From: Arthrobacter crystallopoietes
GTDB lineage: Bacteria; Actinomycetota; Actinomycetes; Actinomycetales; Micrococcaceae
DNA: 64,000 nucleotides
Direction: 5' to 3'
NCBI RefSeq assembly: GCF_002849715.1
Contig: NZ_CP018863.1
Location: 930,001 to 994,000, forward strand
Every line of letters begins with the position of its first letter. The first letter of the stretch is position 1. Of the stretch, positions 8,615 to 63,895 are shown piece by piece. Position numbers and translations under genes: made by a program. The notes under the pieces were generated by a model. It was not told the origin of the DNA. It worked only from the letters and a program-made list of their open reading frames with translations, and searched no databases.

Positions 8615-8668
8615 ACGACGGCGGCACTCCAGGTGGGATTTCCCTCCCACCGGAAGTGCCGGCGTCGT
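8615..8668. terminator. Long bidirectional hairpin between convergent genes, carries the 10-mer motif
   Basis: The outer stem pairs 8615-8630 with 8653-8668 (two mismatches) and the inner stem GGTGGGA/TCCCACC (8632-8638, 8645-8651) closes a six-base loop. The left arm begins with ACGACGGCGG and the right arm ends with the near-complement CCGGCGTCGT. It ends both the merR transcript and the glycerophosphodiesterase transcript. Confidence 0.8.
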
Positions 8669-8683
8669 ACGTAGTTAGTGTCT

Positions 8684-9961
8684 TCAGTTGGCGAAGATGT
8701 CCTGCAGCTGGCCCTGCGGGGTCCACAGCGCCACGGAGTCGCCGCCGTTGTTCAGCACCGAGGCGGTGCCATCGTTGTAGAAACTCTCCGCGGTGTTGGT
8801 GCCGGGGCCGGTGTAGACGCGCAGTTCGGCGCCCGGGGCCAGGACGTACCCGTCGCCGATCGCAAGGATGTTGTTCGCCGCGTCGCGGATGATGCTGCCG
8901 CTGACATCGATGCTGCGGCCGGTGGTGTTGCGCAGGAGCACATGCTCCCCGGTTTCCGCCTGGACGTCGCTGCCGGCCGGGTTGTTAACCGAGTCGACGA
9001 TTTCGACGCCGTTCGCCGCGGGGAAGGGCTTTCCGCCGTCGAGGTAGCGGGCGGTCTGGATTGGGAAGTCGCCCGTGACGGCGTCGACACCAAGGTCGAT
9101 GGAGTGCTGGACGGCCTCGGGCGAGTTAGCGGTGTAGACGCCGATGACCAAGCCGGCGGCCTTCACATCCGCAACGTTCTGCGCGGTCAGCGTGCGGTAA
9201 TTGGTGCCCACGGAATCGGCGAACCCAGCCCACTGGGCCAGGGTTTCCGGACCGGGAACGGTGCTGGAAAGCTGCTGCAGCTCGATCTCCGGGGCGATGG
9301 AGGCGAAGGTCCGGTTGGAGGCCTCATCGAAGCCGAGCACCTGGATCTTGTCCGCGGCGACCAGTTTCTGCCACTTCTTATCGGTGCGCAGCTCATCGGC
9401 GACCAGCTGCTCGATGCCCGGGGAGTTCTTCGGGGACTTGATCTCGATGTAGACGCCGGTCTCGGTGGTGGCGACCTTGGCGGCATCGTCCAGGTGCGGG
9501 ATGCGTTCGCCGGCGAATTCCTCGCCGAAGTAGGCACCGGCGTCGAGCTGCTGCAGCTCCGCCCAAGTGAAGGACGTGATCGGATCGTTGGCGCGGTCCG
9601 GGAAGACACCCTCGACGTTGGTGGTGCGGGCCGGGGTGTCGTCGTGGAAGAGGAACGGCACGCCGTCGGCGCTGAGCTGCACGTCGATCTCGAAGAAGTC
9701 CGCACCGGAGGCCCGGCCGTCCTTGAACGCGGCAACGGTGTTCTCCGGTGCCGTGCCGGCGGCACCGCGGTGCCCGATAAGCAGCGGAGCTTCGGCCTGG
9801 CTGCCGGCCGCATTGTCCTGCGCGGCTGCCTCGGCGGTATTGGCTGCGCCGGGCTGCGGCGCTGCCTGCTGGGCAACGGCGGCAGGCGCTGCGAGCAGGG
9901 ACAGCCCGACGGCGGTGGCCGCGGCTGACCCGGTCAGTAGCGTGGTGATGCGTGATGCCAT
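8684..9961 (-). CDS. Secreted glycerophosphodiester phosphodiesterase with lamin-tail domain
   Basis: A 425-residue exported enzyme. Residues 1-31 are a signal peptide (MASRITTLLTG, then a hydrophobic Ala-rich core and AVAQQA). The GDPD domain follows: IGHRGAAGTAPENT, EIDVQLSADGVPFLFHDDT and YIEIKSPKN carry the His, Glu and Asp residues of the catalytic and metal sites. The last ~100 residues form a lamin-tail/LTD-like beta-sandwich (EIVDSVNNPAGSDVQAETGE onward), an attachment or substrate-binding module. It would hydrolyse glycerophosphodiesters or teichoic-acid-like polymers outside the cell to scavenge phosphate and glycerol phosphate. ATG at 9961 is chosen because it starts the signal peptide; an upstream ATG would spoil it. 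Confidence 0.9.
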   Translation of the reverse strand: MASRITTLLTGSAAATAVGLSLLAAPAAVAQQAAPQPGAANTAEAAAQDNAAGSQAEAPLLIGHRGAAGTAPENTVAAFKDGRASGADFFEIDVQLSADGVPFLFHDDTPARTTNVEGVFPDRANDPITSFTWAELQQLDAGAYFGEEFAGERIPHLDDAAKVATTETGVYIEIKSPKNSPGIEQLVADELRTDKKWQKLVAADKIQVLGFDEASNRTFASIAPEIELQQLSSTVPGPETLAQWAGFADSVGTNYRTLTAQNVADVKAAGLVIGVYTANSPEAVQHSIDLGVDAVTGDFPIQTARYLDGGKPFPAANGVEIVDSVNNPAGSDVQAETGEHVLLRNTTGRSIDVSGSIIRDAANNILAIGDGYVLAPGAELRVYTGPGTNTAESFYNDGTASVLNNGGDSVALWTPQGQLQDIFAN

Positions 9962-10112
9962 GAGAATTGAACTTCCTTCATCCTGGTGGTCGATATCTCC
10001 CCTTGGTCGATGCTGGCGCGTGGTTGCATCCGGCATGCCAACGCGGAGTGAACCCGAAATGAAGGTCGGGAAAAGGTGGACGCGGTGTGGCGGCCGCCAC
10101 TAGATTACGAGC

Positions 10113-10748
10113 ATGGCTCAACATGGGGGAACCAACGATCCTGCCGCTGCCGGCGGCCGGACGGACGCCGGCGCTCCGGACCAAGCTGGCGCGCCGCTGC
10201 CGGGACGGCCGCCCAGACCGCAGCTGTCAGACCGGACGCCGCCGCCGATAGGGCAGGCCCTGCCACCCACCGGGATGGTGAAGGCAGCCAGGTCGCTGTG
10301 GCTGTTGAGCTTCCTGCTCGGCGCGGTGGCCATCGCCTTTGCCTACTTGTCCCGCGACCACCGGCTGGAGCGGCTCCGCGAGATCGTGGCCGAGGTTGAC
10401 CCTGCCCAGGACGAAGCGACAGTCGATGCGGTGGCTGCGCTGGTGCATTGGGGCAGCCTGGGCGCCCTGGCACTCATCATTGTGGTTGAGGCACTACTGC
10501 TGCGCGGGCTGATGCGCCGGCGCGGCGGGATCCGGTGGGTGCAGCTGGTGGTCCTGCTCATCCACGGCGGAGCAGCGGTCCTGACGGACGCATTTTTGGT
10601 GGCTCCGGGCGAGGGCGAAATGTACCTCCGCTGGATGCTGGTGGCACAGCTGGTGCTAGCCAGTGCGGCGCTGCTGGTCAGCCTGCTGCCCGGCGCCGAC
10701 GCCTGGTTCCGTGCCAAGCACGAGACGTACGGTAGGCCGCGGGGCTGA
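10113..10748 (+). CDS. Four-segment membrane protein of unknown function
   Basis: A 211-residue protein with a Pro/Ala/Gly-rich cytoplasmic N-terminus (about 55 residues) and four predicted membrane helices at about 60-80, 112-132, 142-162 and 173-192. The layout resembles actinobacterial four-helix membrane proteins with a proline-rich tail, but I cannot name a family. It is convergent with the second dynamin-like GTPase gene and the two coding regions overlap tail to tail by 93 bp, which is unusual. Confidence 0.75.
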   Translation: MAQHGGTNDPAAAGGRTDAGAPDQAGAPLPGRPPRPQLSDRTPPPIGQALPPTGMVKAARSLWLLSFLLGAVAIAFAYLSRDHRLERLREIVAEVDPAQDEATVDAVAALVHWGSLGALALIIVVEALLLRGLMRRRGGIRWVQLVVLLIHGGAAVLTDAFLVAPGEGEMYLRWMLVAQLVLASAALLVSLLPGADAWFRAKHETYGRPRG

Positions 10749-12287: not shown

Positions 12288-14119
12288 ACTGTGCCTGCCA
12301 GGGCAGGTTTGCCGTCCAGCTGCTGGACATGTTTGCGCAGCGCGTTGACGCGCTTGAGCTCGGCCTTGATCTGCCGGATACGATCTTCGCGTTCCAACGT
12401 AAACGTGGAAGCTGCCTTCTGGGCCGCAAGCACCGAATCCGCCAGCGAGCGGTGGTGCTCTTCGGCGATTTCGGTGAAGTGGTCCCGCGTGGCGCGCTGC
12501 ACCAGACGGAGCCGGTCCTTGAGCTGCTTGCCCACTTGGAAGACGACGTCGTCCAGTTGGCGGCGGACCAGTGCCTTGGCCTCCGTCTGGCGCCGCTTGA
12601 GCCTGGCTTCCTTGTCCTCCCGGTAGGCCTTGCCGCCGAGCAGAAGGCCCGCCCCAACCGACAACGGGTTGATCAGGGCCATGCCGACGATTCCGGTCAG
12701 CAGGCCGAACATGAGCACGCCGCCGTAGGAGCCGCGCATACCGATCAGGACCTTCTGCAGCGGCCCGATATGCCCCGGATCCAGCACGGGCACCTGCTCC
12801 ACCGGGTCCAGCACACCGCCGGTATCGTCCACCCGGAGCACCGGCAGCGGCACTTCGTCCCGCGCGAAATGTTCGGCGACCTGCGCGGAGAGCCACTGTG
12901 CGCGCTCGTCCGCCCAGACAAAGGTGTCAGACACGGCCGAAGCAACACGCTGCTCGAGCCACTCGGCGAACTGGGCCCAAATCGGCCCCGGATCCCCCGC
13001 GTCGATGGCCTCCTCGGCGTCGCGCTGGATGATGCGCAGGCGGTCGCGCAGGTCATGCTCCATGTCCGCAATAAGGTCGCTGACGCCATCGCCGAGCGTA
13101 ATTTGCCAACGCGCCGACCGCCGTCGTTGTTCGTCCGCGCGTTCTTTTGCAGTCTCCAGTTCCGCGATCATCTGTGGCGTGCTTTCGGGGTCTTCCAGCG
13201 CGCTGAGCTCGGACTGCAGCGACAGCCCCAGGTGCTCGGTGGTGGAGAGCAGGTCGCGGGCCACCGAATGCCGCTGGAGCCGTTCGGCCTGGCCGAGGAT
13301 CTCCTTGCGCAGGTAGGTGACCAGTTCGGGAAAACCGGACTCCGCGTTGAGCTCGTCGTCGCGCAGCCGCGCGGCATGCAGGCGCAAGTCGGACGAGACG
13401 GGGAACAGCGGGATGCCGGAGCCCACCCGGTCCAGGTGGCGTCGGTCCAGCTCCGCCACCTGCCGCCACTGCGGATACAGGTCCGTCTTGGACAGCACGC
13501 AGGCCACGTTGGGGCAGATCCGCATCGCCTGCCGCAGGAAGCGGATCTCCGGCTCGGTGTACTCCTGCGAGGCGTCCGAGACCAGCAGCATCGCGTCCGC
13601 GGTGGGCAGCGCGGTGAGCGTGGTCAGCGAGTGCGCCGAGTCCAGACCGCCCACGCCGGGCGAATCCACCAGCGACAGCCCTCCGGCGAGAACCTTGCGC
13701 GGCAGGTACACCTCGGCCGCGGCCAGCCGGTTGCGGTTTCCGGGATTGCCGCTCTCGGAAACGTGGGCGGCCAGCTCCTCCAGTTTGACCGGGCGGCGCT
13801 CCAGCTCAGGTTCCCTGTCACCGTCGGCGTAGCCGGTCTCGCCCTTGGGAACAACGACGACGGCGGACGGCGGATCTCCATGGCGCACCACTGTAGGAAC
13901 GGAGGTGGCAACATCGTCGTCGACCGGGCAGACCGGTGCGTTGACCAGGGCGTTGATCAACTGGCTCTTGCCCTGCTTGAATTCACCGACCACGATCACC
14001 CGGATGCTGGGATCCAGCAGCCTGCGGCGGGTCTGTTCCAGCCGGCGCCGCAGGTCCCGCCGCTCCCCGGTGCCGACCAGCTCGATGCCATAGTCAACCA
14101 GCTTCACGAGCTCAACCAC
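12284..14119 (-). CDS. iniA-like: Dynamin-like GTPase, first of pair (IniA-like)
   Basis: A 611-residue dynamin-family GTPase. P-loop GEFKQGKS is at residues 45-52, G3 VDSPGVGG near 155 and G4 SKTD near 210. A long helical stalk follows, then a glycine-rich hydrophobic hairpin (GGVLMFGLLTGIVG to AGLLLGG, about residues 467-495) that resembles the membrane-inserting paddle of bacterial dynamins, then a coiled-coil return. It would remodel or repair the cytoplasmic membrane. It lies 104 bases downstream of the IniB-like gene and is translationally coupled to the IniC-like gene. IniA in mycobacteria is induced by cell-wall inhibitors; a similar envelope-stress role is inferred. Confidence 0.87.
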   Translation of the reverse strand: MVELVKLVDYGIELVGTGERRDLRRRLEQTRRRLLDPSIRVIVVGEFKQGKSQLINALVNAPVCPVDDDVATSVPTVVRHGDPPSAVVVVPKGETGYADGDREPELERRPVKLEELAAHVSESGNPGNRNRLAAAEVYLPRKVLAGGLSLVDSPGVGGLDSAHSLTTLTALPTADAMLLVSDASQEYTEPEIRFLRQAMRICPNVACVLSKTDLYPQWRQVAELDRRHLDRVGSGIPLFPVSSDLRLHAARLRDDELNAESGFPELVTYLRKEILGQAERLQRHSVARDLLSTTEHLGLSLQSELSALEDPESTPQMIAELETAKERADEQRRRSARWQITLGDGVSDLIADMEHDLRDRLRIIQRDAEEAIDAGDPGPIWAQFAEWLEQRVASAVSDTFVWADERAQWLSAQVAEHFARDEVPLPVLRVDDTGGVLDPVEQVPVLDPGHIGPLQKVLIGMRGSYGGVLMFGLLTGIVGMALINPLSVGAGLLLGGKAYREDKEARLKRRQTEAKALVRRQLDDVVFQVGKQLKDRLRLVQRATRDHFTEIAEEHHRSLADSVLAAQKAASTFTLEREDRIRQIKAELKRVNALRKHVQQLDGKPALAGTV

Positions 14120-14223: not shown

Positions 14224-15492
14224 TCACTCGACGTTGACGCTGTTGTCGGTGTTCTCCTCTACTTCAAGGTCAAACTCGTTGTCTGCGACGATGACCGATT
14301 CATCGATCGACGTGAACTCGGCCTCGACGTCGCCGATCTCGGTGTTGACGGATTCGTCGTTGGTGAAGGAATCCTCCACCTCCAGGTTGGTCGACTCGTC
14401 CGTGTTGAAGGAGTCGTCCGCGGTGAAGGAGTCCTCGACGTTGGTGGAGTTGTCCGTGTTGCCGATGTTCTCCAGTTCGGCGTCGATGTTTGTTGAGTTG
14501 TCCGAGTTGTCGTTGAACGAGTCCTCCAGTTCGACGTCGACCTCGGAGTTGCCGACATCCTCCAGCGAGTTATCTTCGGAGTTATCGTTCAGCGAATTGT
14601 CCAGGTCCACATCGACGGAGTTGTCCTCCGAGTTGTCGTTGAACGAGTCCTCGTTCGTGGTTTCCTCGACGTCGACGGTGTTGAAGTTGCCGTCGATGCC
14701 GTCGTTGTCCTCGTTGCCGATTTCGTTCTCGTCCCCGTCGACACCGTCGTTGTCCTCGTTGAACGAGCCGATGATGGTGGTGTCCTCGCTGCCGACTTCG
14801 ACGTCGACGTCGCCGTCGGCCTCGACATCGACATTGGTGGAGTTGTCCTCGGAGTTGTCCTGCTCAACATCGCCGTCGGCAGCGATCGAATCATCACCGT
14901 TGGCCACGTTCGCGTCTTTGCCGGCAGCCACCGAGTCGTCACCGGAGGCGATGACTGCGTCGTTGTCGAAGATCTGGCTGACGTCACCATCGGCCCAGAT
15001 GTTTTGGTTCACCGACTGGTCGTTGATGGTATCCCTGTCGTCCACCGTGGAGGTGTAGGAATACTCGTTGACGATGTGGGTCAGCTGTTGGACTGCGTGG
15101 CCGTGGTCGTCATCGTCGTTCCGGCGATGACCGCCGTCGTCGTCGTTATCCCGGTCCGGACGATGGTGGCCGTTGTCGTTGTCGTTGTCCCAGTCGCGGC
15201 CGCCGCCCCCGCCGCCGTCGTTGTTATTACCCCCGTCGCTGTCCGGATTGTTGTGGTCGATCCGCGAGGAGTTATCCCCCGTGTTGTACTCGCGGTCGAA
15301 GGAGGCACCGACGCCAACCGGGGCAAAGTCCAGGACTACCGGCATGACGGCGTCGACGTCGTCCGAGCAGACGTCGCTGAGGCCGGCGTGCTCCAGTTCC
15401 CGCTCGGGATCCTCGCGGAAGGCGTGGGCCGCATCGGGGTCCCGGAGCAGGTTCATGATGAATTCAAGAAGGGTGTTCGCAAGAGTAGGCAT
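14224..15492 (-). CDS. iniB-like: IniB-like protein with extremely acidic Asn/Asp/Ser repeat tail
   Basis: A 422-residue protein. Residues 1-58 (LLEFIMNLLRDPDAAHAF, then EDPERELEHAGLSDV) match the N-terminal helical domain of mycobacterial IniB, which in that protein precedes a Gly/Ala-rich region. Here residues ~75-130 are Asp/Gly/His-rich (NNNDGGGGGG, DNDNDNGHH) and ~155-422 are almost devoid of Lys and Arg and built of short units such as SEDNS, NSTNV and DNSVNVE. The tail is probably disordered or a beta-solenoid and could bind cations. There is no signal peptide. Ribosome binding site GAGGGA precedes ATG 15492. The gene leads the dynamin pair. Confidence 0.82.
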   Translation of the reverse strand: MPTLANTLLEFIMNLLRDPDAAHAFREDPERELEHAGLSDVCSDDVDAVMPVVLDFAPVGVGASFDREYNTGDNSSRIDHNNPDSDGGNNNDGGGGGGRDWDNDNDNGHHRPDRDNDDDGGHRRNDDDDHGHAVQQLTHIVNEYSYTSTVDDRDTINDQSVNQNIWADGDVSQIFDNDAVIASGDDSVAAGKDANVANGDDSIAADGDVEQDNSEDNSTNVDVEADGDVDVEVGSEDTTIIGSFNEDNDGVDGDENEIGNEDNDGIDGNFNTVDVEETTNEDSFNDNSEDNSVDVDLDNSLNDNSEDNSLEDVGNSEVDVELEDSFNDNSDNSTNIDAELENIGNTDNSTNVEDSFTADDSFNTDESTNLEVEDSFTNDESVNTEIGDVEAEFTSIDESVIVADNEFDLEVEENTDNSVNVE

Positions 15493-18252: not shown

Positions 18253-18256
18253 GACG

Positions 18257-20311
18257 TCACCCCTCCGGCGCAGGTGCAGGTGCAGGTGCAGTCGAGGGTG
18301 CTTCCGGTGCGGGCACGGGCGGTGCCGGGTCAGCTGCTGGTTCGGTCGCGGTGGGCGCCGGCGGTGCGGGTTCAGGAGGAGCGGGTTCAGGAGGAGCGGG
18401 GGCGGGCGGGTCAGGTGCGGGAGCCGTCTGCTCCGGGGCGGGTGGCTCGGGGACTGGCTGCACGGGCACCGGGGTCTGCGGGACGTCAGGAGCAGGTGCC
18501 ACGGGCGGCTCGGCTGTGGTCGGCGGCTGCGTGGCCGGGGGTTGGGCCGGCGTCGTGGGCGCGGGACCGGTTGCCGGCGGCTTCGGCTGCGGCGCCGGGG
18601 AGGTCGGGTCTTGTGCGGCCTTGCTCGGTTCGGCGGCTGGTCCGGGGGCTGATGGACCCGTTCCCTTTGCCGTCGGCTTCGGTGTGCTCGACGACGAGTC
18701 CGGGCTGGGTGCGTTTGTGCCTGACGTGGAGCCCTTCCGCGGTGTGGCCCCGCCGTCGTTATTTACTGCTGCCGAGGTCCCGTCCGCGGGCGCCGTCCCT
18801 GCGATGGGATCGGCGTCGGGATCCACCGCCTGCCAGTTATCAGTGATCGGAGCCCCGCCGCTGCCGTCCAAGACCGGCAGTCCTGCCGGTCCCCCCGCAC
18901 CTGATCCCTGTGGCCCAGCGCCATCGGGCAGCGGAGCCGTCCCCGCTTCGCCTTGCTCGTCCGGAGCCTGCGCCCCCGCTGCCCCGGCCGCCAACGAACT
19001 CATTTCCGCCGGACTCTGGGCCGCTGTGGCCGTCAGGATGGTGAGCGTGGCGACGGTTGCCGCGACCGCCGTCATCCGGGCGCCGGTCCGCGGGTGTGCC
19101 GGTTTACCGGAAGCCACTGGCGCGGCCGTCCCCGTGTCAGTTCCGAAACCGTGGCCGTGGCCTTGGGCGGCTGGCTCCTCGGGCGCGGCCGGACTGTCCG
19201 GAGCAGTCCCCGCTCCGGCCGCCGCCGGAGCCAGCATGGCCGCGGCCGAGAACGCTGCGCCCAGCGAGATGGAAGCCTTGGGATCGGCGTCGATAGCGAT
19301 CGGCCGGTTGAACTCCGCCGAGAGCAACTGCGCCACGAGCGGGATGCGCGAAGAACCGCCGATCAGGAGGATGGCGCTCAGGTCTTCGGCCTCGGTGCCG
19401 GCCGCCTGCATCGCACGCTTCAGCGCCGCCATGGTCGTTTGCACGCCGTCGTCGATCATCGCTTCGAACTCCGAGCGCACCAAACGAATCTGGTTTTGGC
19501 CGCCCGGCAGAAGTACCGGGATGGAGGCCTCGGAATCCGTGGAAAGGGCTTCCTTCGCCTCCGTGCATTCCCGGCGGAGCCGCGCGAGCGCCATCAGTAC
19601 CCCGGGATCGGTGGTATCGAGGCCGGCCAGCGCGTCTGCCGCGCAGGAAGCAACATGGCGGAAGACAGCGTCGTCGAAATCGGCGCCGCCGAGGCGCTCG
19701 ATGCCCTCAGGACGCCCCAGCGTGCGGAACGTGTCCGCACTGGTCTTCTGCAGGACGGCCGCGTCGAAGGTTCCGCCGCCGAGATCGTAGACCGCGACGG
19801 TGCTGCCTTCATCGACCCGTTCCTGCGAGGCATAGTGGACCGCAGCAGCCTCCGGTTCGCTGACCAGCGTGACCTCGGCGAGTCCCACACCTGCCAGGGC
19901 TTGCCGGATCAGGTCCGTTTTATAGCCGCCCCAGCTGGCCGGATGCGCAATAGCGATGGCGGCAGGCGGTTCCCCCTCGCGTTCCTGGGCGCGGTCGACA
20001 ACCCAACGTGCCATGGTGGCGACAATATCCTCGGGCGCAACAGACAGGTCGCCGACGACGATGGGGACGGCGTCACCCACACGCCGCTTGAATTCACGTA
20101 CTAACCGGTCCGGATGGGTTGTTCCGCGGCGTTCGGCTGCCTCGCCTACCAGGACCTGGCCGTCCTCGCCCAGGAAAATCACCGATGGCACCGAGCCGCC
20201 GCGTACGCCCAGGTTCAGGATCTGCGGTGGCGGCTGCCCTGCACCGTCCAGGCGCGCGACCGCCGCGGCGGAAAAGCTCGTGCCAATATCAATGCCAAGT
20301 ACAAAGCTCAT
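18257..20311 (-). CDS. Membrane-anchored Hsp70-like protein with proline-rich extracytoplasmic tail
   Basis: A 684-residue protein. Residues 1-360 are an Hsp70/actin-type ATPase: GIDIGTSFSAAAV (phosphate 1), YDLGGGTFDAAVL near 175 (phosphate 2) and LIGGSSRIPLV near 316 (adenosine). The substrate-binding domain of DnaK is absent. A single membrane helix follows at about 413-431, then ~250 residues rich in Pro, Ala, Glu and Thr ending in PAPEPAPP-type repeats, which should lie outside the membrane. An NNDGG linker encoded by the 10-mer motif is at about residue 520. ATG 20311 is used because of the GGGGGAG ribosome binding site; a TTG 15 bases upstream is less likely. Confidence 0.85.
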   Translation of the reverse strand: MSFVLGIDIGTSFSAAAVARLDGAGQPPPQILNLGVRGGSVPSVIFLGEDGQVLVGEAAERRGTTHPDRLVREFKRRVGDAVPIVVGDLSVAPEDIVATMARWVVDRAQEREGEPPAAIAIAHPASWGGYKTDLIRQALAGVGLAEVTLVSEPEAAAVHYASQERVDEGSTVAVYDLGGGTFDAAVLQKTSADTFRTLGRPEGIERLGGADFDDAVFRHVASCAADALAGLDTTDPGVLMALARLRRECTEAKEALSTDSEASIPVLLPGGQNQIRLVRSEFEAMIDDGVQTTMAALKRAMQAAGTEAEDLSAILLIGGSSRIPLVAQLLSAEFNRPIAIDADPKASISLGAAFSAAAMLAPAAAGAGTAPDSPAAPEEPAAQGHGHGFGTDTGTAAPVASGKPAHPRTGARMTAVAATVATLTILTATAAQSPAEMSSLAAGAAGAQAPDEQGEAGTAPLPDGAGPQGSGAGGPAGLPVLDGSGGAPITDNWQAVDPDADPIAGTAPADGTSAAVNNDGGATPRKGSTSGTNAPSPDSSSSTPKPTAKGTGPSAPGPAAEPSKAAQDPTSPAPQPKPPATGPAPTTPAQPPATQPPTTAEPPVAPAPDVPQTPVPVQPVPEPPAPEQTAPAPDPPAPAPPEPAPPEPAPPAPTATEPAADPAPPVPAPEAPSTAPAPAPAPEG

Positions 20312-22947: not shown

Positions 22948-24021
22948 ATGGCATCGTCACCAGCTGCCGCAGGCCTCCCCGGCCCCACGTCCCGCGGCCT
23001 CGCCCTCGTCCGGGTCAGCCTTGAACCGGGCGGCGTTGGGCTCGTCCCGCACCGGCCCCGCGCTCCGCGGCCGGACGAGGTGGAACTCAAGGTGACGCTG
23101 TGCGGCCTCTCCGGCGCCGACGTCGTTGTCTACCATGCCGATCCGGCCTTTGACTGGGTCCGTTCCGGCACGGTGCTCGGGCACGAAGCCGTGGGGGTGG
23201 TATCTGCCGTCGGCCTGCTAGTACCGGAATGGCCGGCCCCGGGGACCCGCGTTGTTCCGGTATCCATGGTCAGCTGCGGCGACTGCGAAGAATGCCTGGC
23301 CGACCGGCCGCAGCAGTGCGCGCGGCCCAGTATCCTGGGGCTCAACCGTGATGGAACGGCAGCGCGGACCGCCCTGGTTCCGTGGCAGAACCTGCTGGCG
23401 GTGCCGGACGGTCTACCCGATACGACGGCGGTGCTCGCCGAGCCGACGTCCGTCGCCTGGCGTGCCGCCGCCACGGTGGGACAGATCCGTCCCGGCGACC
23501 GTGTGGCGGTTTCGACTACCCGGGCGGTCGGGCTGCTCGCTGCCCTGATTGCCCGGAGCCTGGGCGCCGACGTTGTGATGGTGGGACGTCCCGGCCCCCA
23601 CCATCAGCAACGCCAGGAACTCGCCGCGAGCCTCGGGCTGGAAAGCACCACCGAGCCCGAGCCGGAGAGCGTTGATGTCTGGATCGAAGCATCCGGTTCG
23701 GGCAAGCAGTTGGCTGCCGCCGTGGAGGTGCTGCGGCCGGGCGGCAGACTTGTGCTCGTGGCCATGTACGCCACGGGTGCCCGGCAGACGGTGAACACGC
23801 TGGTTGGCAAGGAGCTCACCGTCCTGACCAGCTACGCCTCTACCCGCTCGGACTACGATGACGCGCTGGCGTTCCTGTCAACCATGCCGGACCTCGGCGA
23901 ACGCCTGATCACCGTTTACCCTATGGGGCAGGCCGTGGAGGCGCTGCGCCTGACGGCAGAAGGAGCGCCTGCCGATCACGGCCGCCCGCTGGTCAAAGCC
24001 GTGCTCCGGCTGAACGGCTAA
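22948..24021 (+). CDS. Zinc-dependent alcohol dehydrogenase-like MDR protein
   Basis: A 357-residue medium-chain dehydrogenase. Visible are the catalytic-zinc Cys in LCGLSGAD, the GHEAVGVV motif, the four structural-zinc cysteines in CGDCEECLADRPQQC, and a Rossmann fold in which the glycine motif is degenerate (STTRAVGLLAA), so cofactor binding may be atypical. A strong ribosome binding site (AGGGAGGAG) precedes the ATG. It is monocistronic. Substrate: a sugar alcohol or threonine-like alcohol is usual for relatives. No specific assignment is possible. Confidence 0.85.
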   Translation: MASSPAAAGLPGPTSRGLALVRVSLEPGGVGLVPHRPRAPRPDEVELKVTLCGLSGADVVVYHADPAFDWVRSGTVLGHEAVGVVSAVGLLVPEWPAPGTRVVPVSMVSCGDCEECLADRPQQCARPSILGLNRDGTAARTALVPWQNLLAVPDGLPDTTAVLAEPTSVAWRAAATVGQIRPGDRVAVSTTRAVGLLAALIARSLGADVVMVGRPGPHHQQRQELAASLGLESTTEPEPESVDVWIEASGSGKQLAAAVEVLRPGGRLVLVAMYATGARQTVNTLVGKELTVLTSYASTRSDYDDALAFLSTMPDLGERLITVYPMGQAVEALRLTAEGAPADHGRPLVKAVLRLNG

Positions 24022-32753: not shown

Positions 32754-32791
32754 AACACCCTCCCGCCGGATACACAACCGATTAACGACGG

Positions 32792-32829
32792 CGGCACCCG
32801 GCCAGGTTCTTACCCTTGGCCGGGTGCCG
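32792..32829. terminator. Bidirectional terminator, stem contains the 10-mer motif
   Basis: CGGCACCCGGCCA (32792-32804) pairs perfectly with TGGCCGGGTGCCG (32817-32829). The left arm overlaps a copy of ACGACGGCGG at 32785-32794. It separates the convergent methyltransferase and CitM genes. Confidence 0.8.
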
Positions 32830-40661: not shown

Positions 40662-40761
40662 GAGTTCCCCCTCGTGCACAGTTTCCTCGTCCAAGGCGCG
40701 ATATCAGTGCGTGCCCCGCAACCAGCTTCCTGATTGGGCGTTGGGAAAAACCTATGAACGG

Positions 40762-47306: not shown

Positions 47307-47553
47307 TTCCAGCTCCTTCCGCCACCGCCACGTGTTGCACGAGGCCCGCCTGTCCGCCGGCCGGTCGAAATGTCCTATTGGGAGGAAATATACGCCGGCA
47401 TGCGCCTCGGGCGGCACGCACAACCTACATCGGCCCCTTGCCAAACGCAGGCGGCTGGCTAGGCTGAAGGTCAGGGGAAGCGCAGCGAGGCATTCCCCGT
47501 CCCGGCCGATCGGATCTGTCTGCGGCCTAGGCCGCACGGTCCAGGAAGGTGGC
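47307..47553. other. 247-bp divergent intergenic region
   Basis: It separates the TTG-start hypothetical gene and the CBS-domain gene, which diverge. No further gene is supported. Promoters for both must lie here. I see no clear operator. Confidence 0.4.
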
Positions 47554-50215: not shown

Positions 50216-51529
50216 ATGCCGGAAGTATTCATGCCGCGCCTGTCCGACACCATGGAAGAAGGTGTCATCAGCCGCTGGCTCAAAAAGGAGGGCGACACAG
50301 TCCATCAGGGCGATGTGATCGGCGAGATCGACACCGACAAGGCCACCATGGACCTGGAGGTGTTCGAGGACGGCGTCCTGGAGAAGCTTCTCGTTCCCGA
50401 GGGCACCACCGTAGCCATCGGTGAAGCGGTAGCGATCATCGGCGGCGGGAGCGGAACCGGAGGCGGGGAGGCACCCGGCACTTCAACAACACAAAGTACG
50501 ACGGCGGCCGAGGCACCGGCAGCACCCCGCGAATCCGCAGCGCCCGCACCATCCGCGGCACCAGCAGCACCGAAGGAGCCGGCCAAACCAACATCCGGCG
50601 GCCGAGTCTTGACCTCTCCCCTTGCCCGCAGAATCGCCGCCGAGCACGGCATTGACCCGGCCACCCTCACGGGCACCGGCCCAGGCGGCCGGATAGTCCG
50701 CGCCGACGTCGAGGCCGCGGCGGCAGCGGGCGAAGGGCGAACCGAGAAGACGGACCAGGGCGCCCAAGCAGGGCAGCCGGCCCAACCCAGCCCAACTGAA
50801 GCTCCACGGCCAGCAGCAGCGCCCAACCAGACGGATACGGGCGCCGACTCCGTTGATGTGCCCCTGACGCAGATGCGCAAGGCCACGGCCCGCCGGTTGA
50901 CCGAAAGCGCTGGCGCTCCCCACTTCTTCCTAACCAACGTTGTGGGCGTAGACCGCCTGTTCGCGTTCCGGCAGGAAGTCAACCAGCGCTATGCGGACTC
51001 CGGAATCAAGGTCAGCGTGACCGACCTACTGGTGAGGGCCTGCGCCGTCACCCTGCATGCGCACCCGCAGGTCAACTCCTCCTGGGCAGGAGATAAAATC
51101 CTGCAGCACCGCCGCACGCACATCGGCGTCGCCGTCGCCATCGAAAACGGACTCATTGTCCCCGTCGTCAGGGATGCGGATGCCAAACCCCTGGACGAGC
51201 TTGCTGCGGAGACACGGGAACTGGCGGAGAAGGCCCGCGCCGGCAAGCTCAAGCGCGATGAATTCAGAGGCGGCACGTTCACTATCAGCAACCTGGGCAT
51301 GTTCGGAATCGATAACTTCACCGCAGTGATCAACCCGCCCGAGGCAGCCATCCTGGCCGTAGGTGCCGCTACTGAGGAACCGTTCGTGCAGGACGGGACG
51401 CTGCAGAGCAGACGGATCATGAAGCTGACCATGACCGCTGACCACCGGGTGCTGGACGGCGCGACCGCGGCCGCGTTCCTTCGGGACCTCAAACAGACGC
51501 TGGAGGAACCCCTGCGCATCCTCCTTTAG
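50216..51529 (+). CDS. pdhC: Dihydrolipoamide acyltransferase (E2)
   Basis: A 437-residue E2 core. One lipoyl domain (1-75) has the lipoyl lysine in EIDTDKATMDLEV near residue 41. An Ala/Pro linker encodes STTAAEAP at a copy of the 10-mer motif. A peripheral-subunit binding domain (LTSPLARRIAAEHGIDPATL, about 130-165) follows, then the catalytic CAT domain with the HRVLDGA motif near the end. E3 (dihydrolipoamide dehydrogenase) is not encoded here and must be shared with another complex. Confidence 0.92.
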   Translation: MPEVFMPRLSDTMEEGVISRWLKKEGDTVHQGDVIGEIDTDKATMDLEVFEDGVLEKLLVPEGTTVAIGEAVAIIGGGSGTGGGEAPGTSTTQSTTAAEAPAAPRESAAPAPSAAPAAPKEPAKPTSGGRVLTSPLARRIAAEHGIDPATLTGTGPGGRIVRADVEAAAAAGEGRTEKTDQGAQAGQPAQPSPTEAPRPAAAPNQTDTGADSVDVPLTQMRKATARRLTESAGAPHFFLTNVVGVDRLFAFRQEVNQRYADSGIKVSVTDLLVRACAVTLHAHPQVNSSWAGDKILQHRRTHIGVAVAIENGLIVPVVRDADAKPLDELAAETRELAEKARAGKLKRDEFRGGTFTISNLGMFGIDNFTAVINPPEAAILAVGAATEEPFVQDGTLQSRRIMKLTMTADHRVLDGATAAAFLRDLKQTLEEPLRILL

Positions 51530-52773: not shown

Positions 52774-53562
52774 TCAGCGCGCACTGACGTGCTCGCCCAG
52801 TTGCTGGGTGATCTTGTGCGCCTCCTCAAGCAGAAGTTTGCCGAGGAATTCCTGCCGTTCCGGGCGGAACCGCTGCTCGATGCCGGTGAGGGACAGAGCC
52901 CAGGCCGGGTTGCCCTGGCGGTCGAAAACCGCGGCACCCATGCCCCAGCTGCCCTCGAGGATGAGCCCTGGGTTCACTGTGTAGCCGTTGCGACGGGTAG
53001 CTTCCAGGTTCGCCCGGATCCGTTCTGCGGTATGGGCGGGGCCGAAGCGCGCGGCGCGCGCACCGCCGTCGTCAAGCAACCGGTCCACCTCCGCTTCCGG
53101 GAGGAAGGCCATGATGGCCAGTCCGGCCGAGGCAACTCCCAGCGGAAAGCGGACGCCTTCATGCAGAACGAACGAACGCACCGGAAAGCTGCCTTCGACG
53201 CGCAACAGACAGACCGTTTCGTCGCCACGCCTAATGGAAAGGAATGCGCTCTCGCCGGTTTCGTCTGCCAAGCGTTGCAGGCTAGGCCGGGCCAGGTCCT
53301 CTATGGCGTACCGGTTGGCGGCGACGGCTCCGAGGACATAGATCTCGGGGCCCAAATGCCACGTGCCCGTCTCGGCATGGTGATCCAGCAGCCCCTCGGC
53401 CGCCAGCGAGTTCAGCAGCCGGTAGACCGTGGGCCGTGTCAGCCCCGATGCCTCGACGATCGCCGGAAGCGCCGCACCTCCTTCCGGGGAGCGCCCAACA
53501 ATGCGCAGCAACTGGGCCACCCGCCCGACCACTTGCGCCCCCTGCACCGTTTTTTCTGCCAT
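52774..53562 (-). CDS. IclR-family regulator of the CoA-transferase operon
   Basis: A 262-residue regulator. The winged helix is in GGAALPAIVEASGLTRPTVYRLLNSL (about 28-53) and the effector-binding domain ends with ILEGSWGMGAAVFDRQGNPAWALSLTG. It resembles PcaR/IclR proteins controlling aromatic or short-chain acid catabolism. It diverges from scoA, and four TGGACA/TGTCCA half-sites lie between. It probably responds to a ketoacid such as acetoacetate or succinyl-CoA-derived metabolites. Confidence 0.9.
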   Translation of the reverse strand: MAEKTVQGAQVVGRVAQLLRIVGRSPEGGAALPAIVEASGLTRPTVYRLLNSLAAEGLLDHHAETGTWHLGPEIYVLGAVAANRYAIEDLARPSLQRLADETGESAFLSIRRGDETVCLLRVEGSFPVRSFVLHEGVRFPLGVASAGLAIMAFLPEAEVDRLLDDGGARAARFGPAHTAERIRANLEATRRNGYTVNPGLILEGSWGMGAAVFDRQGNPAWALSLTGIEQRFRPERQEFLGKLLLEEAHKITQQLGEHVSAR

Positions 53563-54491: not shown

Positions 54492-55208
54492 ATGGCTTGG
54501 ACACGAGACGAGATGGCCGCCATCGCTGCCACCGAACTCAACGACGGCGACTACGTCAACCTCGGAATCGGCATCCCCACCCTGGTGGCAAACAACCTGC
54601 CTGAAGGCGTGCGCGTGGTGCTGCAAAGCGAGAACGGACTGCTCGGCATGGGCCCGTTCCCCTATGAGGGCGAGGAAGACGCGGACCTGATCAACGCCGG
54701 CAAGCAAACCGTCACCGTGCTGCCCGGCGGGTCGATCTTCGACTCCGCCACGTCCTTCGGCATGATCCGCGGCGGGCACGTGAAGGTCGCCATCCTCGGC
54801 GCTATGGAGGTCTCCGGCGCCGGCGACCTGGCCAACTGGACCATTCCCGGCAAGATGGTCAAAGGCATGGGCGGCGCCATGGACCTGGTGGCCGGCACAC
54901 CGCGTGTGGTGGTGCTGACCGACCACGTGGCCAAGGACGGCACAGCCAAGATCGTCAACGAATGCTCGCTGCCGCTCACCGGCGTCCGCGTAGTCAACCG
55001 CATCATCACCGATCTGGCCGTCTTCGACATCACTAACGACGGCGACGATACCGCAAACAACGACGGCGGCAGCCCGGCACTGGTACTGACGCAACTGGCC
55101 CCCGGGATCACCCTTGAAGAGGTCCGGGAGAAGACCGAGGCACCTTTCACGGTAGCCCCCGCGCTCGAGACGGAACTGGCTGCTGCCTTGGAAGGAGCAC
55201 AGCGATGA
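54492..55208 (+). CDS. scoB: 3-ketoacid CoA-transferase subunit B with a repeat-derived insert
   Basis: A 238-residue partner of scoA. The catalytic glutamate is in [12 protein letters not shown] near residue 44; [15 protein letters not shown] and the C-terminal [12 protein letters not shown] are family features. Between ITDLAVFDI and [11 protein letters not shown] there is a stretch, [15 protein letters not shown], that is longer than in B. subtilis ScoB and includes the AACAACGACGGCGG copy at 55060-55069. Translation overlaps the next gene by 4 bases (ATGA). Confidence 0.92.
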
Positions 55209-56481: not shown

Positions 56482-58359
56482 TTACTTGGAGACTTTGCCC
56501 ATCCGGGCGGCGATGGGTGTGGTGAAGAGCGGTTTCGTCAGAAACCACGCGGCCACGATAACCAGCAGGGAAACCGCGAAGATGATCAGCCCCCACCAGT
56601 CCACGACGTCGCGCGAGGTGTACATGTGGTTCAGGTTGCGCAGGGCCCCGGTAAAGAAGACCAGGAACACGTGCACGACGGTGAACGCCACGAAGTAGAG
56701 CATCACCGGGAAATGGACCGCCCGGGCCCACTCCACCGGGTACGCCTTGTTGAGCCCGGCGGCCTGCTCCGGCCACCAGGTGGAGATCCGGATACCGGAA
56801 ATGATCGCCAGCGGGGCAGCAATGAACACGGTGATGAAATACGTCATCACCTGCAGCGCGTTGTAATGCACCCACCCGTTCTCCGTCGGCCAGTCCAGCG
56901 AGACGTACTGGATACCGGCCGAGAGCATATTCGGGAAAATGTCCCAGCTGGTCGGCACGATCCGCATCCACTGCCCGGTGGCCAACAGCAGCACGATAAA
57001 GACCAGCCCGTTGAGCACCCAGAGCACGTCCAGGCTCTGGTGCAGCCACTGGGACAGGGAGACCTTCTTCGTGGTATTGCCCTTCGGCGAGAAGAACGAG
57101 TCCTTCTTTGCGGTCCAGTACCCGGGCGGCTTGCGCTCGGTGCGCACCTGCAGGCCCGTCCGGACGATCAGCACAATGAAAAACATGTTGAGGAAGTGCT
57201 GCCAGCCCAACCATGCCGGCAACCCGACCGGGGCACTATCCGGCTGGGACGCATGCCCGTCGTAGGTCGCAATGAACTCCTGCACCGGCTCCATGCTCCG
57301 CAACCAGCGGGAACCAAACACCGCCAGCAGAGCCAACACCAGCACGACGGCGGTCACCACCACCGGCCTCACCCACGCCGGGCGTTTTCCCGTCTGCTTG
57401 GCTCCGCCAGTCGGGGCGGGCCGGCCCGAGGTTGTCAGCGGCGTTAATCCGGAACCGCTCCGGGCAGCCACACCGGTCGGCGTGGCCGCCGGTGTCGAAG
57501 GCGGCGCCGGCGCCGGTGATCCCATCCGCGAGCGGGCCGGCGGGGCAGAATCGCCTTGGGCAGGAGTCGGGCTCTTGGCCGCTGCGGTTCCCTGCCCTTG
57601 GGTAGCGCCCATGCGCTGGCGGGTGCCGCCAGCGGTGACGGGTTTGACTTCGGGTGATGCGGCCGGCGCCGGGGATGCTCCCATACGGGTCTTTCCTGAT
57701 GGCGCCGGAACCGGTTCCTGCCCGGAAGTCGATGGCGCCGACCCCATCCGCTGCTTCCGAGCTGGCGCATCAGGCGGTGCATCGGTGGAGGCGGGTGGCT
57801 GGACGCCCATGCGCTGCTTCCGCACGGGAGCGGCAGGTGGTTCATCGGCGGGTGCCGCATCCGGAGGTGCTGCATTGGTGGAAGCAGCCGGCTGGACCCC
57901 CATGCGCTGCTTGCGCACCGGGGCCGTTGGCTGGGGTGTCTTCGGCGGCTCCGAGACCTGAGCAGCAGATCCGCTGTCATTCCCGCCCTTTTCCTCCTGC
58001 GGCAAGGGCCGATAGCCGCCCATCCGCTGCCTCTTCGCCGGAGCGGCCGCCGCGGCCTGTGTCACCTGCGACGGCGCGGCAGCCGCGTCCTGTGCAGGCG
58101 ACGCCGCGCGCGGTGCCGCCTGCACATCGGGGGCTGCGGACTGGACCGAGGCCTGACTCGGAGCCTGCTCCGGTGCCTCCGAGACTGGCGCAGCCGGTAC
58201 CGCAGAACTCCCAGCCGCGGCGGGGACTGTGCTGGCGGCGTCGACGTCGTCGGCTGCGGCAGACTGCTGATCCTGCTGCGTCGCCTGTGCCGGCGGACGG
58301 TATCCGGCCATGCGCTGACGGCGCGGGGCAGGGTCAGCCGCGCTGTTCTCGTTGGTCAT
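56482..58359 (-). CDS. Cytochrome-b-like membrane protein with eightfold (R/K)QRMG repeat domain
   Basis: A 625-residue protein. Residues 1-330 are cytoplasmic, Ala/Pro-rich and carry eight motifs: RQRMAGYRP, RQRMGGYRP, KQRMGVQP twice, KQRMGSAP, KTRMGASP, RQRMGATQ and SRMGSP, at about 14, 110, 150, 181, 202, 223, 247 and 277. A first membrane helix is at 331-350, then about four helices with His in WQHFLNMFF, WLHQSLDVL, VHYNALQ and VHFPVMLYFVAFTVVHVF, the pattern of b-type heme proteins such as formate dehydrogenase gamma or thiosulfate reductase subunits. It is the third gene of etfB-etfA-this gene and may pass ETF electrons to menaquinone. Confidence 0.8.
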   Translation of the reverse strand: MTNENSAADPAPRRQRMAGYRPPAQATQQDQQSAAADDVDAASTVPAAAGSSAVPAAPVSEAPEQAPSQASVQSAAPDVQAAPRAASPAQDAAAAPSQVTQAAAAAPAKRQRMGGYRPLPQEEKGGNDSGSAAQVSEPPKTPQPTAPVRKQRMGVQPAASTNAAPPDAAPADEPPAAPVRKQRMGVQPPASTDAPPDAPARKQRMGSAPSTSGQEPVPAPSGKTRMGASPAPAASPEVKPVTAGGTRQRMGATQGQGTAAAKSPTPAQGDSAPPARSRMGSPAPAPPSTPAATPTGVAARSGSGLTPLTTSGRPAPTGGAKQTGKRPAWVRPVVVTAVVLVLALLAVFGSRWLRSMEPVQEFIATYDGHASQPDSAPVGLPAWLGWQHFLNMFFIVLIVRTGLQVRTERKPPGYWTAKKDSFFSPKGNTTKKVSLSQWLHQSLDVLWVLNGLVFIVLLLATGQWMRIVPTSWDIFPNMLSAGIQYVSLDWPTENGWVHYNALQVMTYFITVFIAAPLAIISGIRISTWWPEQAAGLNKAYPVEWARAVHFPVMLYFVAFTVVHVFLVFFTGALRNLNHMYTSRDVVDWWGLIIFAVSLLVIVAAWFLTKPLFTTPIAARMGKVSK

Positions 58360-59392: not shown

Positions 59393-59438
59393 AATGTGTG
59401 CCCTTCCGGTCAATCAGGTCATCAAGTCAGGTGTGCGG

Positions 59439-60306: not shown

Positions 60307-60384
60307 CCGCAACAAAACGACGCCGGCACTCGGGTGGGTGGAAAACCCAGCCGAGTGCCGACGTCGTACGTAACTTTGTTGCGG
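60307..60384 (-). terminator. Giant hairpin terminating the 3-hydroxybutyrate dehydrogenase transcript
   Basis: CCGCAACAAA pairs with TTTGTTGCGG (60307-60316, 60375-60384), ACGACGCCGGCACTCGG pairs with CCGAGTGCCGACGTCGT (60317-60333, 60351-60367; one mismatch). The inner stem is a close relative of the repeat-bearing stem at 8615-8668, including the GGCAC and GTGCC parts. Confidence 0.8.
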
Positions 60385-60394
60385 GAAGCGCCGT

Positions 60395-61192: not shown

Positions 61193-61244
61193 GAAAGTTC
61201 CCTTACGTAGAGCAGGTTGGTGCTTGTTGCGGGCGCGGACTGGC

Positions 61245-62615: not shown

Positions 62616-62737
62616 CGGCGCACTCCTTTGTTCTGCAGGTGTCAGCGTTGACATCGGCGTTGCGGGGTCCTGTGTTCCAGCACACAGAACGGCTTTACCG
62701 AGTATGGACATAGCCGCTGCTGTGCATCAATGACCAG

Positions 62738-62760
62738 TTGCGCAGAGATGAAGTGCACAA
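62738..62760. promoter_or_regulatory. LysR-type operator TTGCGCA-N9-TGCACAA
   Basis: Seven-base arms (62738-62744, 62754-62760) with one mismatch lie between the divergent MHS symporter and LysR genes. A further half-site TGTGCA is at 62721-62726. T-N11-A type symmetry is usual for LysR proteins. Confidence 0.6.
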
Positions 62761-62768
62761 TTGCAGAT

Positions 62769-63701
62769 ATGAACAGCCAATCCCCCGGCGCCGCCGCCCC
62801 GAACCCCCACGACCTGCTGATCCTGCTCGCCGTGGCGCGGACCGGAAGATTTACGACGGCGGCCGAGAGCCTGGGTTTGAACCACACCACCGTCTCGCGC
62901 CGGATTACCGCGTTGGAGAAGAGCCTCGGCGGCCGGACGCTCGCCCGCACCGTGGGCGGCTGGGAGCTCACGGACCTGGGCCGCCGGGCCGTGCGGGCCG
63001 CCGAGGACGTGGAGACCGCGGTGGCCACCATCAACGAAGGTGAGGAAGAAGCGGACCAGATCGCCGGCGTCGTACGCATTTCCGCCACCGACGGCTTCAG
63101 TGCGTTCATCATCGCGCCGGCGGTGGCCCAGCTGCGCCGGAAGCACCCGAACCTCAGCGTGGAGATTGTCAACGTCACGCGTCGGGCGCTGCAGCACCGC
63201 TCCGGCCTGGACCTGGAGGTGGTGGTCGGCGAGCCGCAGGTGCACCGGGCCGAGGCAATCCGGCTGGGCTACTACATGCTGGGAATGTATGCCTCGCGCC
63301 GCTATCTGGAGGACTTCGGCACGCCCGCCAGCGTCGCGGAACTCAGCGAGCACCGGCTGGTGTACTTCGTCGACTCGATGCTGCAGGTGGACGATCTGGA
63401 TGCCCCGCGGCGGCTGGTCCCCGGCATGCTGGATTCACTAAGCTCCACCAACGTTTTCGTCCACGTCGAGGCCACCCGGGCCGGCGCCGGGATCGGCTTC
63501 CTGCCCTGCTTTATGGCCGGCCGCCACCCGGACCTAGTGCGGCTTCTGCCGGAGGACTTCCAGGAACGCCTCCCCTACTGGATGGTGCTGCGGCCGGACT
63601 CGCTGCGCCAGCCCGCCGTCGCCGCCGTGGCCGAGGCGCTGCGCCGCCGGACGGCCGCCGTCGAAGACGCCCTGCTGGGCCGCGAACCTCTGGATTACTG
63701 A
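62769..63701 (+). CDS. LysR-family regulator
   Basis: A 310-residue regulator. The N-terminal HTH is LLAVARTGRFTTAAESLGLNHTTVSRRI; its FTTAAES part is encoded by a 10-mer motif copy. The periplasmic-binding-protein-like effector domain follows. It diverges from the MHS symporter-bdh pair and likely activates it in response to 3-hydroxybutyrate or a related acid. ATG 62769 is chosen because an upstream ATG (62730) would place the operator inside the coding region. The 3' end overlaps the next convergent gene by 7 bases. Confidence 0.9.
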   Translation: MNSQSPGAAAPNPHDLLILLAVARTGRFTTAAESLGLNHTTVSRRITALEKSLGGRTLARTVGGWELTDLGRRAVRAAEDVETAVATINEGEEEADQIAGVVRISATDGFSAFIIAPAVAQLRRKHPNLSVEIVNVTRRALQHRSGLDLEVVVGEPQVHRAEAIRLGYYMLGMYASRRYLEDFGTPASVAELSEHRLVYFVDSMLQVDDLDAPRRLVPGMLDSLSSTNVFVHVEATRAGAGIGFLPCFMAGRHPDLVRLLPEDFQERLPYWMVLRPDSLRQPAVAAVAEALRRRTAAVEDALLGREPLDY

Positions 63702-63895
63702 GAACGACGGCGGGTGCGTCGCCGGCCGAAGAGTTCCTTGATCCAACCGAAGGCGACGCCGGACTGCCGGCTCGCACCGGTAGCGCAGGTGCAGCGGCGG
63801 GACTGCGGAACGTTACGCATCACTTGGTCAACATGGTTTCCACAGCCTGCCCACGTTGCCTTTCCGCATTCTTGGCATGTCGCCGTCCGGCACAT
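63695..63895 (-). CDS. Small zinc-ribbon-like protein
   Basis: A 66-residue protein beginning MCRTATCQECGKATWAGCG, with further Cys in RRCTCATG and a basic C-terminus RRRTRRRSQ. Such CxxC-rich proteins with HVDQVM are widespread and strongly conserved in Micrococcales, usually as stand-alone genes. AAGGAC precedes ATG 63895. It likely binds zinc and may contact nucleic acid or ribosomes; no function is established that I know of. Confidence 0.75.
   Translation of the reverse strand: MCRTATCQECGKATWAGCGNHVDQVMRNVPQSRRCTCATGASRQSGVAFGWIKELFGRRRTRRRSQ

What the first reader, a model, noticed from the sequence alone, without database searches (positions are those of the whole stretch)
8615..63713. 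Over-represented 10-mer ACGACGGCGG resembling a DNA uptake sequence or Chi-like element
Twenty-four exact copies occur in 64 kb, on both strands (13 plus, 11 minus), about one per 2.7 kb. Base composition alone predicts fewer than one. Copies lie in genes of unrelated function, in several frames, often in linkers, and in terminator stems; at 8615-8668 and 60317-60367 the motif or its one-base variant forms a near-inverted pair. Abundance, lack of strand bias and use in terminator stems are the hallmarks of DNA uptake sequences in Neisseria and Haemophilus. Alternatives are a Chi-type recombination site or segregation motif, but those are normally strand-biased. I know of no such element described for this group.
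Basis: partly seen in the sequence, partly recalled or inferred. Interest (0 to 1): 0.78.

Follow-up and report, generated by a model that had tools for sequence, protein, structure and literature searches.

The report
Likely DNA-uptake signal in Micrococcaceae
A short DNA word is stamped about a thousand times across this soil-type bacterium's chromosome, but hardly on its plasmid-like smaller pieces, in the way a few other bacteria tag their own DNA so that they can recognise it and take it up; the role is untested, but it would be unusual to find such a tag in a Gram-positive bacterium.

Summary
In detail: 24 exact copies (13+, 11-) in the window against 0.6 in shuffles, 996 (513+/483-) genome-wide. 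[quoted passage not shown] Codon usage does not explain it: 192 genic copies against 50-64 after synonymous shuffling, 64 intergenic against about 1. The fuller motif is AABD-ACGACGGCGG. It lies downstream of genes (1 of 40 strict intergenic sites in divergent regions), forms inverted pairs in hairpins, shows no replication-strand bias beyond background, and is at chance level on the 245-kb plasmid-like contig (3 copies; 52 at chromosomal density). Several relatives carry related words, like DUS dialects, including Micrococcus luteus, which transforms naturally; some relatives carry none. Best explanation: a DNA uptake sequence, probably read by a Tad-pilus competence machine. Uptake and receptor are untested, and presence of ComEC, ComEA or TadA does not separate motif-rich from motif-poor genomes.

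The parts
8608..8676 (+). hairpin holding the motif at 8615-8624 (+) and a one-mismatch inverted copy at 8659-8668 (-); convergent intergenic region
   Evidence: -41.9 kcal/mol; called genes end at 8005 on + and 8684 on -
13118..13127 (-). motif copy, in gene (sense, RRR)
13857..13866 (+). motif copy, in gene (antisense, AVV)
15131..15140 (-). motif copy, in gene (DDGG)
15212..15221 (-). motif copy, in gene (NDGG)
18750..18759 (-). motif copy, in gene (NDGG)
23422..23431 (+). motif copy, in gene (TTA)
24992..25001 (+). motif copy, in gene (YDGG)
25397..25406 (-). motif copy, in gene (antisense, AVV)
32785..32794 (+). motif copy, convergent intergenic region
33584..33593 (+). motif copy, in gene (antisense, AVV)
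33674..33683 (-). motif copy, in gene (NDGG)
34028..34037 (+). motif copy, in gene (antisense, AVV)
35388..35397 (-). motif copy, in gene (antisense, PPS)
36121..36130 (+). motif copy, in gene (NDGG)
40599..40608 (-). motif copy just upstream of a called start; outside a called gene, but a longer ORF (37143-40694) covers it
46153..46162 (-). motif copy, in gene (DDGG)
47282..47291 (-). motif copy outside a called gene, but the ORF 46623-47990 covers it, so uncertain
50498..50507 (+). motif copy, in gene (TTA)
53063..53072 (-). motif copy, in gene (DDGG)
55060..55069 (+). motif copy, in gene (NDGG)
57344..57353 (+). motif copy, in gene (antisense, AVV)
60310..60375 (+). hairpin whose arms carry one-mismatch motif variants at 60317-60326 (+) and 60358-60367 (-)
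   Evidence: -43.3 kcal/mol
62853..62862 (+). motif copy, in gene (TTA)
63704..63713 (+). motif copy two bases after the stop codon of the gene 62769-63701

Best explanation
The word is the core of a DNA uptake sequence (a DUS/USS-like self-recognition tag) of the Micrococcaceae. In this Arthrobacter-like species the motif is about 14 bases, AABD-ACGACGGCGG (B = not A, D = not C). A cell-surface receptor, probably part of the Tad/Flp-pilus competence machine, would bind DNA carrying it and feed it to ComEA and ComEC; recombination of the preferred DNA then keeps copies in the chromosome. Shown here: DNA-level over-representation in genes and between them, both orientations, gene 3'-end and hairpin placement, no replication-strand bias beyond background, chance level on the smaller contigs, related words in several relatives. 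Inferred: that the smaller contigs are plasmids, that the word is recognised during uptake, and by which kind of protein.
For: Most over-represented 10-mer of the sampled chromosome. Genic 192 against 49.8 and 64.0 in two kinds of synonymous shuffle; intergenic 64 against 0.85-1.48. The A-rich flank is present in intergenic copies too. Strict intergenic set: 40 sites in 51.7 kb, 0.27 expected; convergent 8 in 5.3 kb, tandem 31 in 32.6 kb, divergent 1 in 13.8 kb. Neighbouring copies starting under 60 bases apart: 8 are +- pairs, 1 -+, 1 --, 0 ++; 7 of the 8 intergenic. Sense 95, antisense 97 in genes. Leading 149, lagging 128. Contig C3 (244,759 bases): 3 copies, 2.8 Markov-expected; C2 (25,865 bases): 0. 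Dialect-like words: ACGACGCCGC 532 against 40 reversed in G014 and 420 against 28 in G035; CGACGACGGC in M. luteus, intergenic 25 against 0.9 and genic 110 against 36.5; GACGACGCCG and GGACGCCGCC in G227. ComEC, ComEA and three T2SSE ATPases over the family cut-off are present in the genome. M. luteus transformation needs ComEC and Flp/Tad pili (PMC4322843, passages; PMC12849477, passages).
Against: No uptake data and no receptor. ComEC (284 of 297 genomes), ComEA-type HHH_3 (36 of 36) and T2SSE ATPases (36 of 36) do not separate motif-rich from motif-poor genomes. Two sampled family members (G034, G030) show no word of this core, and in two very GC-rich ones (G015, G028) the 10-mer stays below the largest of three nulls at 100 kb (5.5 against 6.2; 5.3 against 5.8), although a few intergenic copies (5 and 3, against 0.1 each) hint at it. 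In M. luteus the signal is clear at 400 kb but not at 100 kb. The hairpin contrast is weak overall: 32 of 68 intergenic and 71 of 209 genic copies form a left arm. Spacing is random (400 kb). Density, about 1 per 5 kb, is lower than the about 1,500 bases between DUS in meningococci (PMC2397512, passages). The M. luteus assay works with a plasmid made in E. coli carrying M. luteus trpE (PMC6667448, passages), so any preference is not absolute, or trpE carries the word (not checked).
Confidence: 0.67

Rival explanations
1. A Chi-type recombination hotspot: the host's AdnAB, RecBCD or AddAB nuclease recognises the word and switches to RecA loading, so it is enriched in the chromosome.
For: Genome-wide, in genes as well as between them, at chance level on the smaller contigs; Chi words differ between lineages (recalled).
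Against: No replication-strand bias beyond background: 149/128, 53.8%, same-composition words 53.3%, whereas Chi in E. coli is strongly co-oriented (recalled). The excess of inverted pairs and of gene 3' ends over divergent regions is not expected of Chi. Chi words that I recall are 5-8 bases; this one is 10-14. Which of these nucleases the genome encodes was not checked.
Confidence: 0.12
2. A binding site for an unknown chromosomal DNA-organising, segregation or repair protein (FtsK-, MatP- or nucleoid-protein-like).
For: Many copies over the whole sampled chromosome and chance level on the smaller contigs.
Against: KOPS-type signals are polar; here none. The word is found in all chromosome regions sampled, thinner near ori (117 per Mb) and ter (172) than elsewhere (211), with a GC correlation of 0.48. 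Gene 3'-end hairpins and lineage variants are not explained.
Confidence: 0.13
3. A terminator component or a mobile REP/MITE-like repeat.
For: Inverted pairs in terminator-like hairpins; two related palindromes in the window.
Against: 192 of 257 copies lie inside called genes, 95 sense and 97 antisense; among the 25 strongest intergenic hairpins printed, most differ in sequence apart from the motif (the list holds some hairpins twice, from either arm or from a duplication); synonymous shuffles show selection within codons.
Confidence: 0.04
4. A by-product of codon usage and common peptides (DDGG, NDGG, AVV).
For: Genic copies fall mainly in DGG and AVV phases; synonymous shuffles retain 50-64 of 192.
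Against: Two thirds to three quarters of the genic copies exceed the shuffles, and 64 intergenic copies face an expectation near 1; A-rich flank between genes too.
Confidence: 0.04

Closest known systems
DNA uptake sequence (DUS) of Neisseriaceae
   Different: Unrelated sequence and phylum. Neisseria uses type IV pili and the minor pilin ComP (PMC6370729, passages); here the likely machine is Tad/Flp pili with ComEA and ComEC, receptor unknown. Lower density.
Uptake signal sequence (USS) of Pasteurellaceae
   Same: Short core with an A/T-rich flank (flank recalled), many copies. The USS inner core GCGG (PMC12616744, passages) also occurs within ACGACGGCGG.
   Different: AAGTGCGGT and ACAAGCGGT are otherwise unlike this motif; sharing of GCGG is probably chance.
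Chi sites
   Same: Over-represented chromosomal word with lineage-specific sequence (recalled).
   Different: No strand bias here; inverted pairs and 3'-end placement.

Membership tests
DUS/USS | short motif at hundreds to thousands of copies above expectation | tested here: met
   996 copies genome-wide; 257 against 16.6 (order 3) and 42.1 (order 5) in 1.204 Mb
DUS/USS | selection on DNA, in genes and between genes | tested here: met
DUS/USS | no global orientation or replication-strand preference | tested here: met
   513/483; 149/128; sense 95, antisense 97
DUS/USS | inverted pairs in terminators at gene 3' ends | tested here: met
   hairpin folds, where the overall contrast with genic copies is weak (32 of 68 against 71 of 209)
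DUS/USS | scarce in foreign or accessory DNA | tested here: inconclusive
   3 copies in 244,759 bases of C3, 0 in 25,865 of C2, but that these contigs are plasmids is inferred; chromosomal islands, phages and core-against-accessory genes were not tested
DUS/USS | clade-specific dialects with a conserved core | tested here: met
   no such word in G034 and G030, not above null in G015 and G028; no tree was built
DUS/USS | host naturally competent | tested here: inconclusive
   ComEC, ComEA-type and T2SSE genes present, but such genes are near-universal in the order; transformation is documented for M. luteus (PMC4322843, passages), not for this species
DUS/USS | motif raises DNA binding, uptake and transformation | not testable with these tools
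   needs an experiment
DUS/USS | dedicated surface receptor (ComP-like) | not tested
   no search for a receptor was made
Chi | co-orientation with replication | tested here: not met
   53.8% leading against 53.3% for same-composition words
KOPS/segregation motif | strong polarity towards dif | tested here: not met
   ori and ter placed by GC-skew switches and DnaA boxes only
REP/MITE repeat | extragenic, copies sharing flanking sequence | tested here: not met
   192 of 257 in genes; flanks beyond about 4 bases not conserved

The most novel reading that the evidence does not exclude
Gram-positive Actinomycetota of the family Micrococcaceae practise sequence-specific DNA uptake through a Tad/Flp-pilus machine, tag their chromosomes with an uptake sequence built on ACGACGNCG, and have split it into dialects that act as partial mating barriers between genera: a third, independent origin of uptake sequences.
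Probability: 0.58. Interest if true: 0.92.

Novelty: new variant of a known kind. Interest (0 to 1): 0.8.

Why it matters
[quoted passage not shown] A third case, in a cell with no outer membrane and a different pilus, would show that self-tagging evolves repeatedly, give a handle on the unknown DNA receptor of Tad-pilus competence, and suggest adding the tag to improve gene transfer into Arthrobacter and Micrococcus. It is directly testable in the laboratory strain M. luteus trpE16.

Tried and rejected
Reversed-word control: several very GC-rich genomes (for example G015, 976 against 53, and G028, 661 against 37) looked strongly enriched by this measure; with synonymous shuffles and intergenic Markov models the 10-mer did not exceed the largest null at 100 kb. 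I therefore do not use that ratio for claims about GC-rich relatives, and the order-wide table is only descriptive. Whether other families of the order (for example G166, 869 against 55) carry the motif is open.

Competence genes as a discriminator: ComEC in 284 of 297 genomes, HHH_3/ComEA in 36 of 36, T2SSE in 36 of 36: no separation. I first took the high-scoring T2SSE at C1:296858 for a type IV pilus ATPase; a neighbouring ORF with a Flp-like pilin N-terminus (judged by eye, no family search) makes a further Tad/Flp locus more likely.

Codon bias, Chi, KOPS, REP, terminator: see rivals. Spacing evenness in 400 kb: not different from random (variance/mean 0.80-1.12), neither support nor refutation.

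Literature: the literal 10-mer and its complement were searched in full text (35 papers each, 25 listed each). In the titles and abstract openings listed I saw none about a bacterial over-represented motif or DNA uptake; I opened none of them. Searches for uptake sequences in Actinobacteria, Arthrobacter, Micrococcaceae or M. luteus showed no report of one in the listings; two searches listed only 15 of 69 and 15 of 298. Subscription papers and preprints are mostly not covered. Papers opened (abstract and passages only): PMC6370729, PMC4322843, PMC3630211, PMC12616744, PMC6667448, PMC2397512, PMC12849477.

A script search for catalase genes (to identify M. luteus through a known protein) found none in the stretches held then.
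Full report
What it lies in. The window is G000:C1:930001-994000 of a 5.03-Mb genome with three contigs: C1 4.76 Mb, C2 25.9 kb, C3 244.8 kb. No call names the genus of G000; Arthrobacter-like is my reading. C2 and C3 are taken to be plasmids because they are separate contigs of lower GC (57.7% and 62.3%), and 9% of the first 20 kb of C3 matches a Paenarthrobacter plasmid at 92%; this is inference.

The observation. 24 exact copies, 13+/11-, against 0.60 in shuffles; 996 in the genome against 131 for the reversed word. In 1.204 Mb of sampled chromosome there are 257, the top 10-mer by deviation from third-order (16.6) and fifth-order (42.1) Markov models among 5033 words tested. A 4.3-kb exact duplication inside that sample holds 2 sites, so those 2 appear twice.

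Not codons. In 1080 called genes there are 192 copies against 49.8 (sd 4.9) after shuffling synonymous codons within genes and 64.0 (sd 6.2) when neighbouring bases are also kept. Between genes there are 64 against 0.85-1.48 for Markov orders 1-3. My gene caller is simple, so I repeated the count in a strict set, 30-400-base gaps between well-supported genes: 40 sites in 51.7 kb against 0.27 expected, with 0-2 copies of each of six control words.

The full motif. The flank is not random: A at -4 in 63% and at -3 in 63% of 65 non-genic copies, A in 3% at -2, C in 3% at -1 (the 192 genic copies similar but weaker). Consensus AABD-ACGACGGCGG. The form AANNACGACGGCG occurs 537 times in G000 against 16 for the reversed pattern.

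Placement. Strict intergenic sites: convergent 8 in 5.3 kb, tandem 31 in 32.6 kb, divergent 1 in 13.8 kb, so the word sits after genes, not in promoter regions. Of neighbouring copies starting less than 60 bases apart, 8 are +- pairs, 1 -+, 1 --, 0 ++; by my own arithmetic from the density fewer than one +- pair is expected. 32 of 68 intergenic and 71 of 209 genic copies form the left arm of a predicted hairpin, a weak contrast; among the 25 strongest intergenic hairpins printed most differ in sequence apart from the motif, and some end in T runs. In genes 95 copies are sense and 97 antisense.

Replication. GC skew switches between 1.54 and 1.56 Mb and near 4.06 Mb, and four DnaA boxes lie in 1.56-1.58 Mb. 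In 1.364 Mb, 149 copies point with the leading strand and 128 against; all 27,854 occurrences of words of the same composition give 53.3% leading. Spacing in a 400-kb stretch is random. Density correlates with local GC (Spearman 0.48).

Smaller contigs. C3 (244,759 bases): 3 copies, Markov 2.8, and no excess over synonymous shuffles (genic 2 against 2.75); at the chromosomal density (213 per Mb) 52 would be expected. C2 (25,865 bases): 0.

Relatives and dialects. In 100-kb samples, scored by intergenic Markov plus synonymous shuffles and against three simulated nulls each, words of the same core lead in G014 (CGACGCCGCT, ACGACGCCGC), G227 (GACGACGCCG, GGACGCCGCC) and G021 (GACGACGACG, CGACGACGGC), and in three 100-kb samples of G000 itself (ACGACGGCGG or AACGACGGCG). 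In G027, CGACGACGGC leads at length 10, but unrelated intergenic repeats lead. In G015 and G028 the 10-mer is below the largest null (an overlapping word, CGACGGCGGG, just passes it in G015, 6.4 against 6.2). G034 and G030 show no word of this core. Whole-genome counts: ACGACGCCGC 532/40 in G014 and 420/28 in G035, 110/95 in G000; but also 145/10 in G038 of another family and 3-5 times control in several GC-rich genomes such as G028 (208/40) and G015 (265/53), where composition may be the cause. AANNACGACGGCG is highest in the window's genus (10 of 10 members at least 5 times control, from 61/12 to 537/16), 414/2 in G016, 248/14 in G032, and at most 26 in any of the 22 genomes of other families. 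Across 295 family members it is graded by genus: genus g24 ranges from 79 to 342, while genera g22 and g23 stay at 14 or fewer. No tree was built.

M. luteus. Whole genome: 368 copies (171/197) against 21 reversed, in 73% GC DNA. In 400 kb: ACGACGGCGG intergenic 16 against 0.84 and genic 59 against 23; CGACGACGGC intergenic 25 against 0.9 and genic 110 against 36.5. In the 100-kb comparison CGACGACGGC ranks third in one sample (8.5; largest null 8.1) behind two other repeat words, and is not among the three words printed for the other. So the M. luteus signal is clear at 400 kb, not at 100 kb. M. luteus needs ComEC and two tad loci for transformation (PMC4322843, passages; PMC12849477, passages).

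Mechanism. Inferred: a surface receptor of the Tad/Flp competence apparatus prefers duplexes with the motif; ComEA and ComEC bring in one strand; recombination with preferred fragments spreads and keeps copies, mainly in permissive places (gene ends, linkers); pairs double as terminators. G000 has an HHH_3 (ComEA-type) match beside ComEC at C1:4.118-4.121 Mb and three T2SSE ATPases over the family cut-off. Which protein recognises the word is unknown; no receptor search was made.

What does not fit. Machinery genes are nearly universal and do not predict the motif. Some genera have no word of this type. Density is lower than in meningococci (PMC2397512, passages). I found no uptake experiment; the searches showed none in the listings seen. 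Chi or another chromosomal protein site remains possible.

Verdict. A real, DNA-level selected, genome-wide motif (about 0.95 by my judgement); DUS-like function the best explanation (0.67).

Noticed in passing
L179-L198 (M. luteus stretches, G401): An intergenic interspersed repeat with a core of about 20 bases (CGCCGTTTCCCGAACGAAAG region), about 20 copies in 400 kb, almost never in called genes.
   Followed up: no
chromosome samples of G000: The palindrome TCGACGTCGA is also over-represented: 48 genic matches counted over both strands, all in one codon phase, against 15-19 after synonymous shuffles. A palindrome is counted once per strand there, so the number of places is half. Unexplained.
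   Followed up: no
L009:170-4458 and L053:840-5128: A 4.3-kb exact duplication between C1 about 0.2-4.5 kb and C1 about 4.743-4.747 Mb, containing two motif copies.
   Followed up: partly
window 8608-8676 and 60310-60375: Two long palindromes resemble each other beyond the motif (CGGCACTC, GGTGGG, GTGCCG.CGTCGTACGTA); a strict pattern found only the second of them in the sampled chromosome.
   Followed up: partly
L135-L139 (G027): Short intergenic repeats (CGCAACAACT, CAACAACTGA, CGATATATCG) lead the over-represented words in this relative.
   Followed up: no
G000 C1:280001-320000 (L023, L024): A further Tad/Flp-like locus with a Flp-pilin-like ORF and a high-scoring T2SSE ATPase; matches above 220 bits occur in only some family members.
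   Followed up: partly
literature: From memory, the serine-integrase Bxb1 attB site contains the 10-mer; two papers on Bxb1 or attB integration were in the listing (not opened). Probably chance.
   Followed up: no
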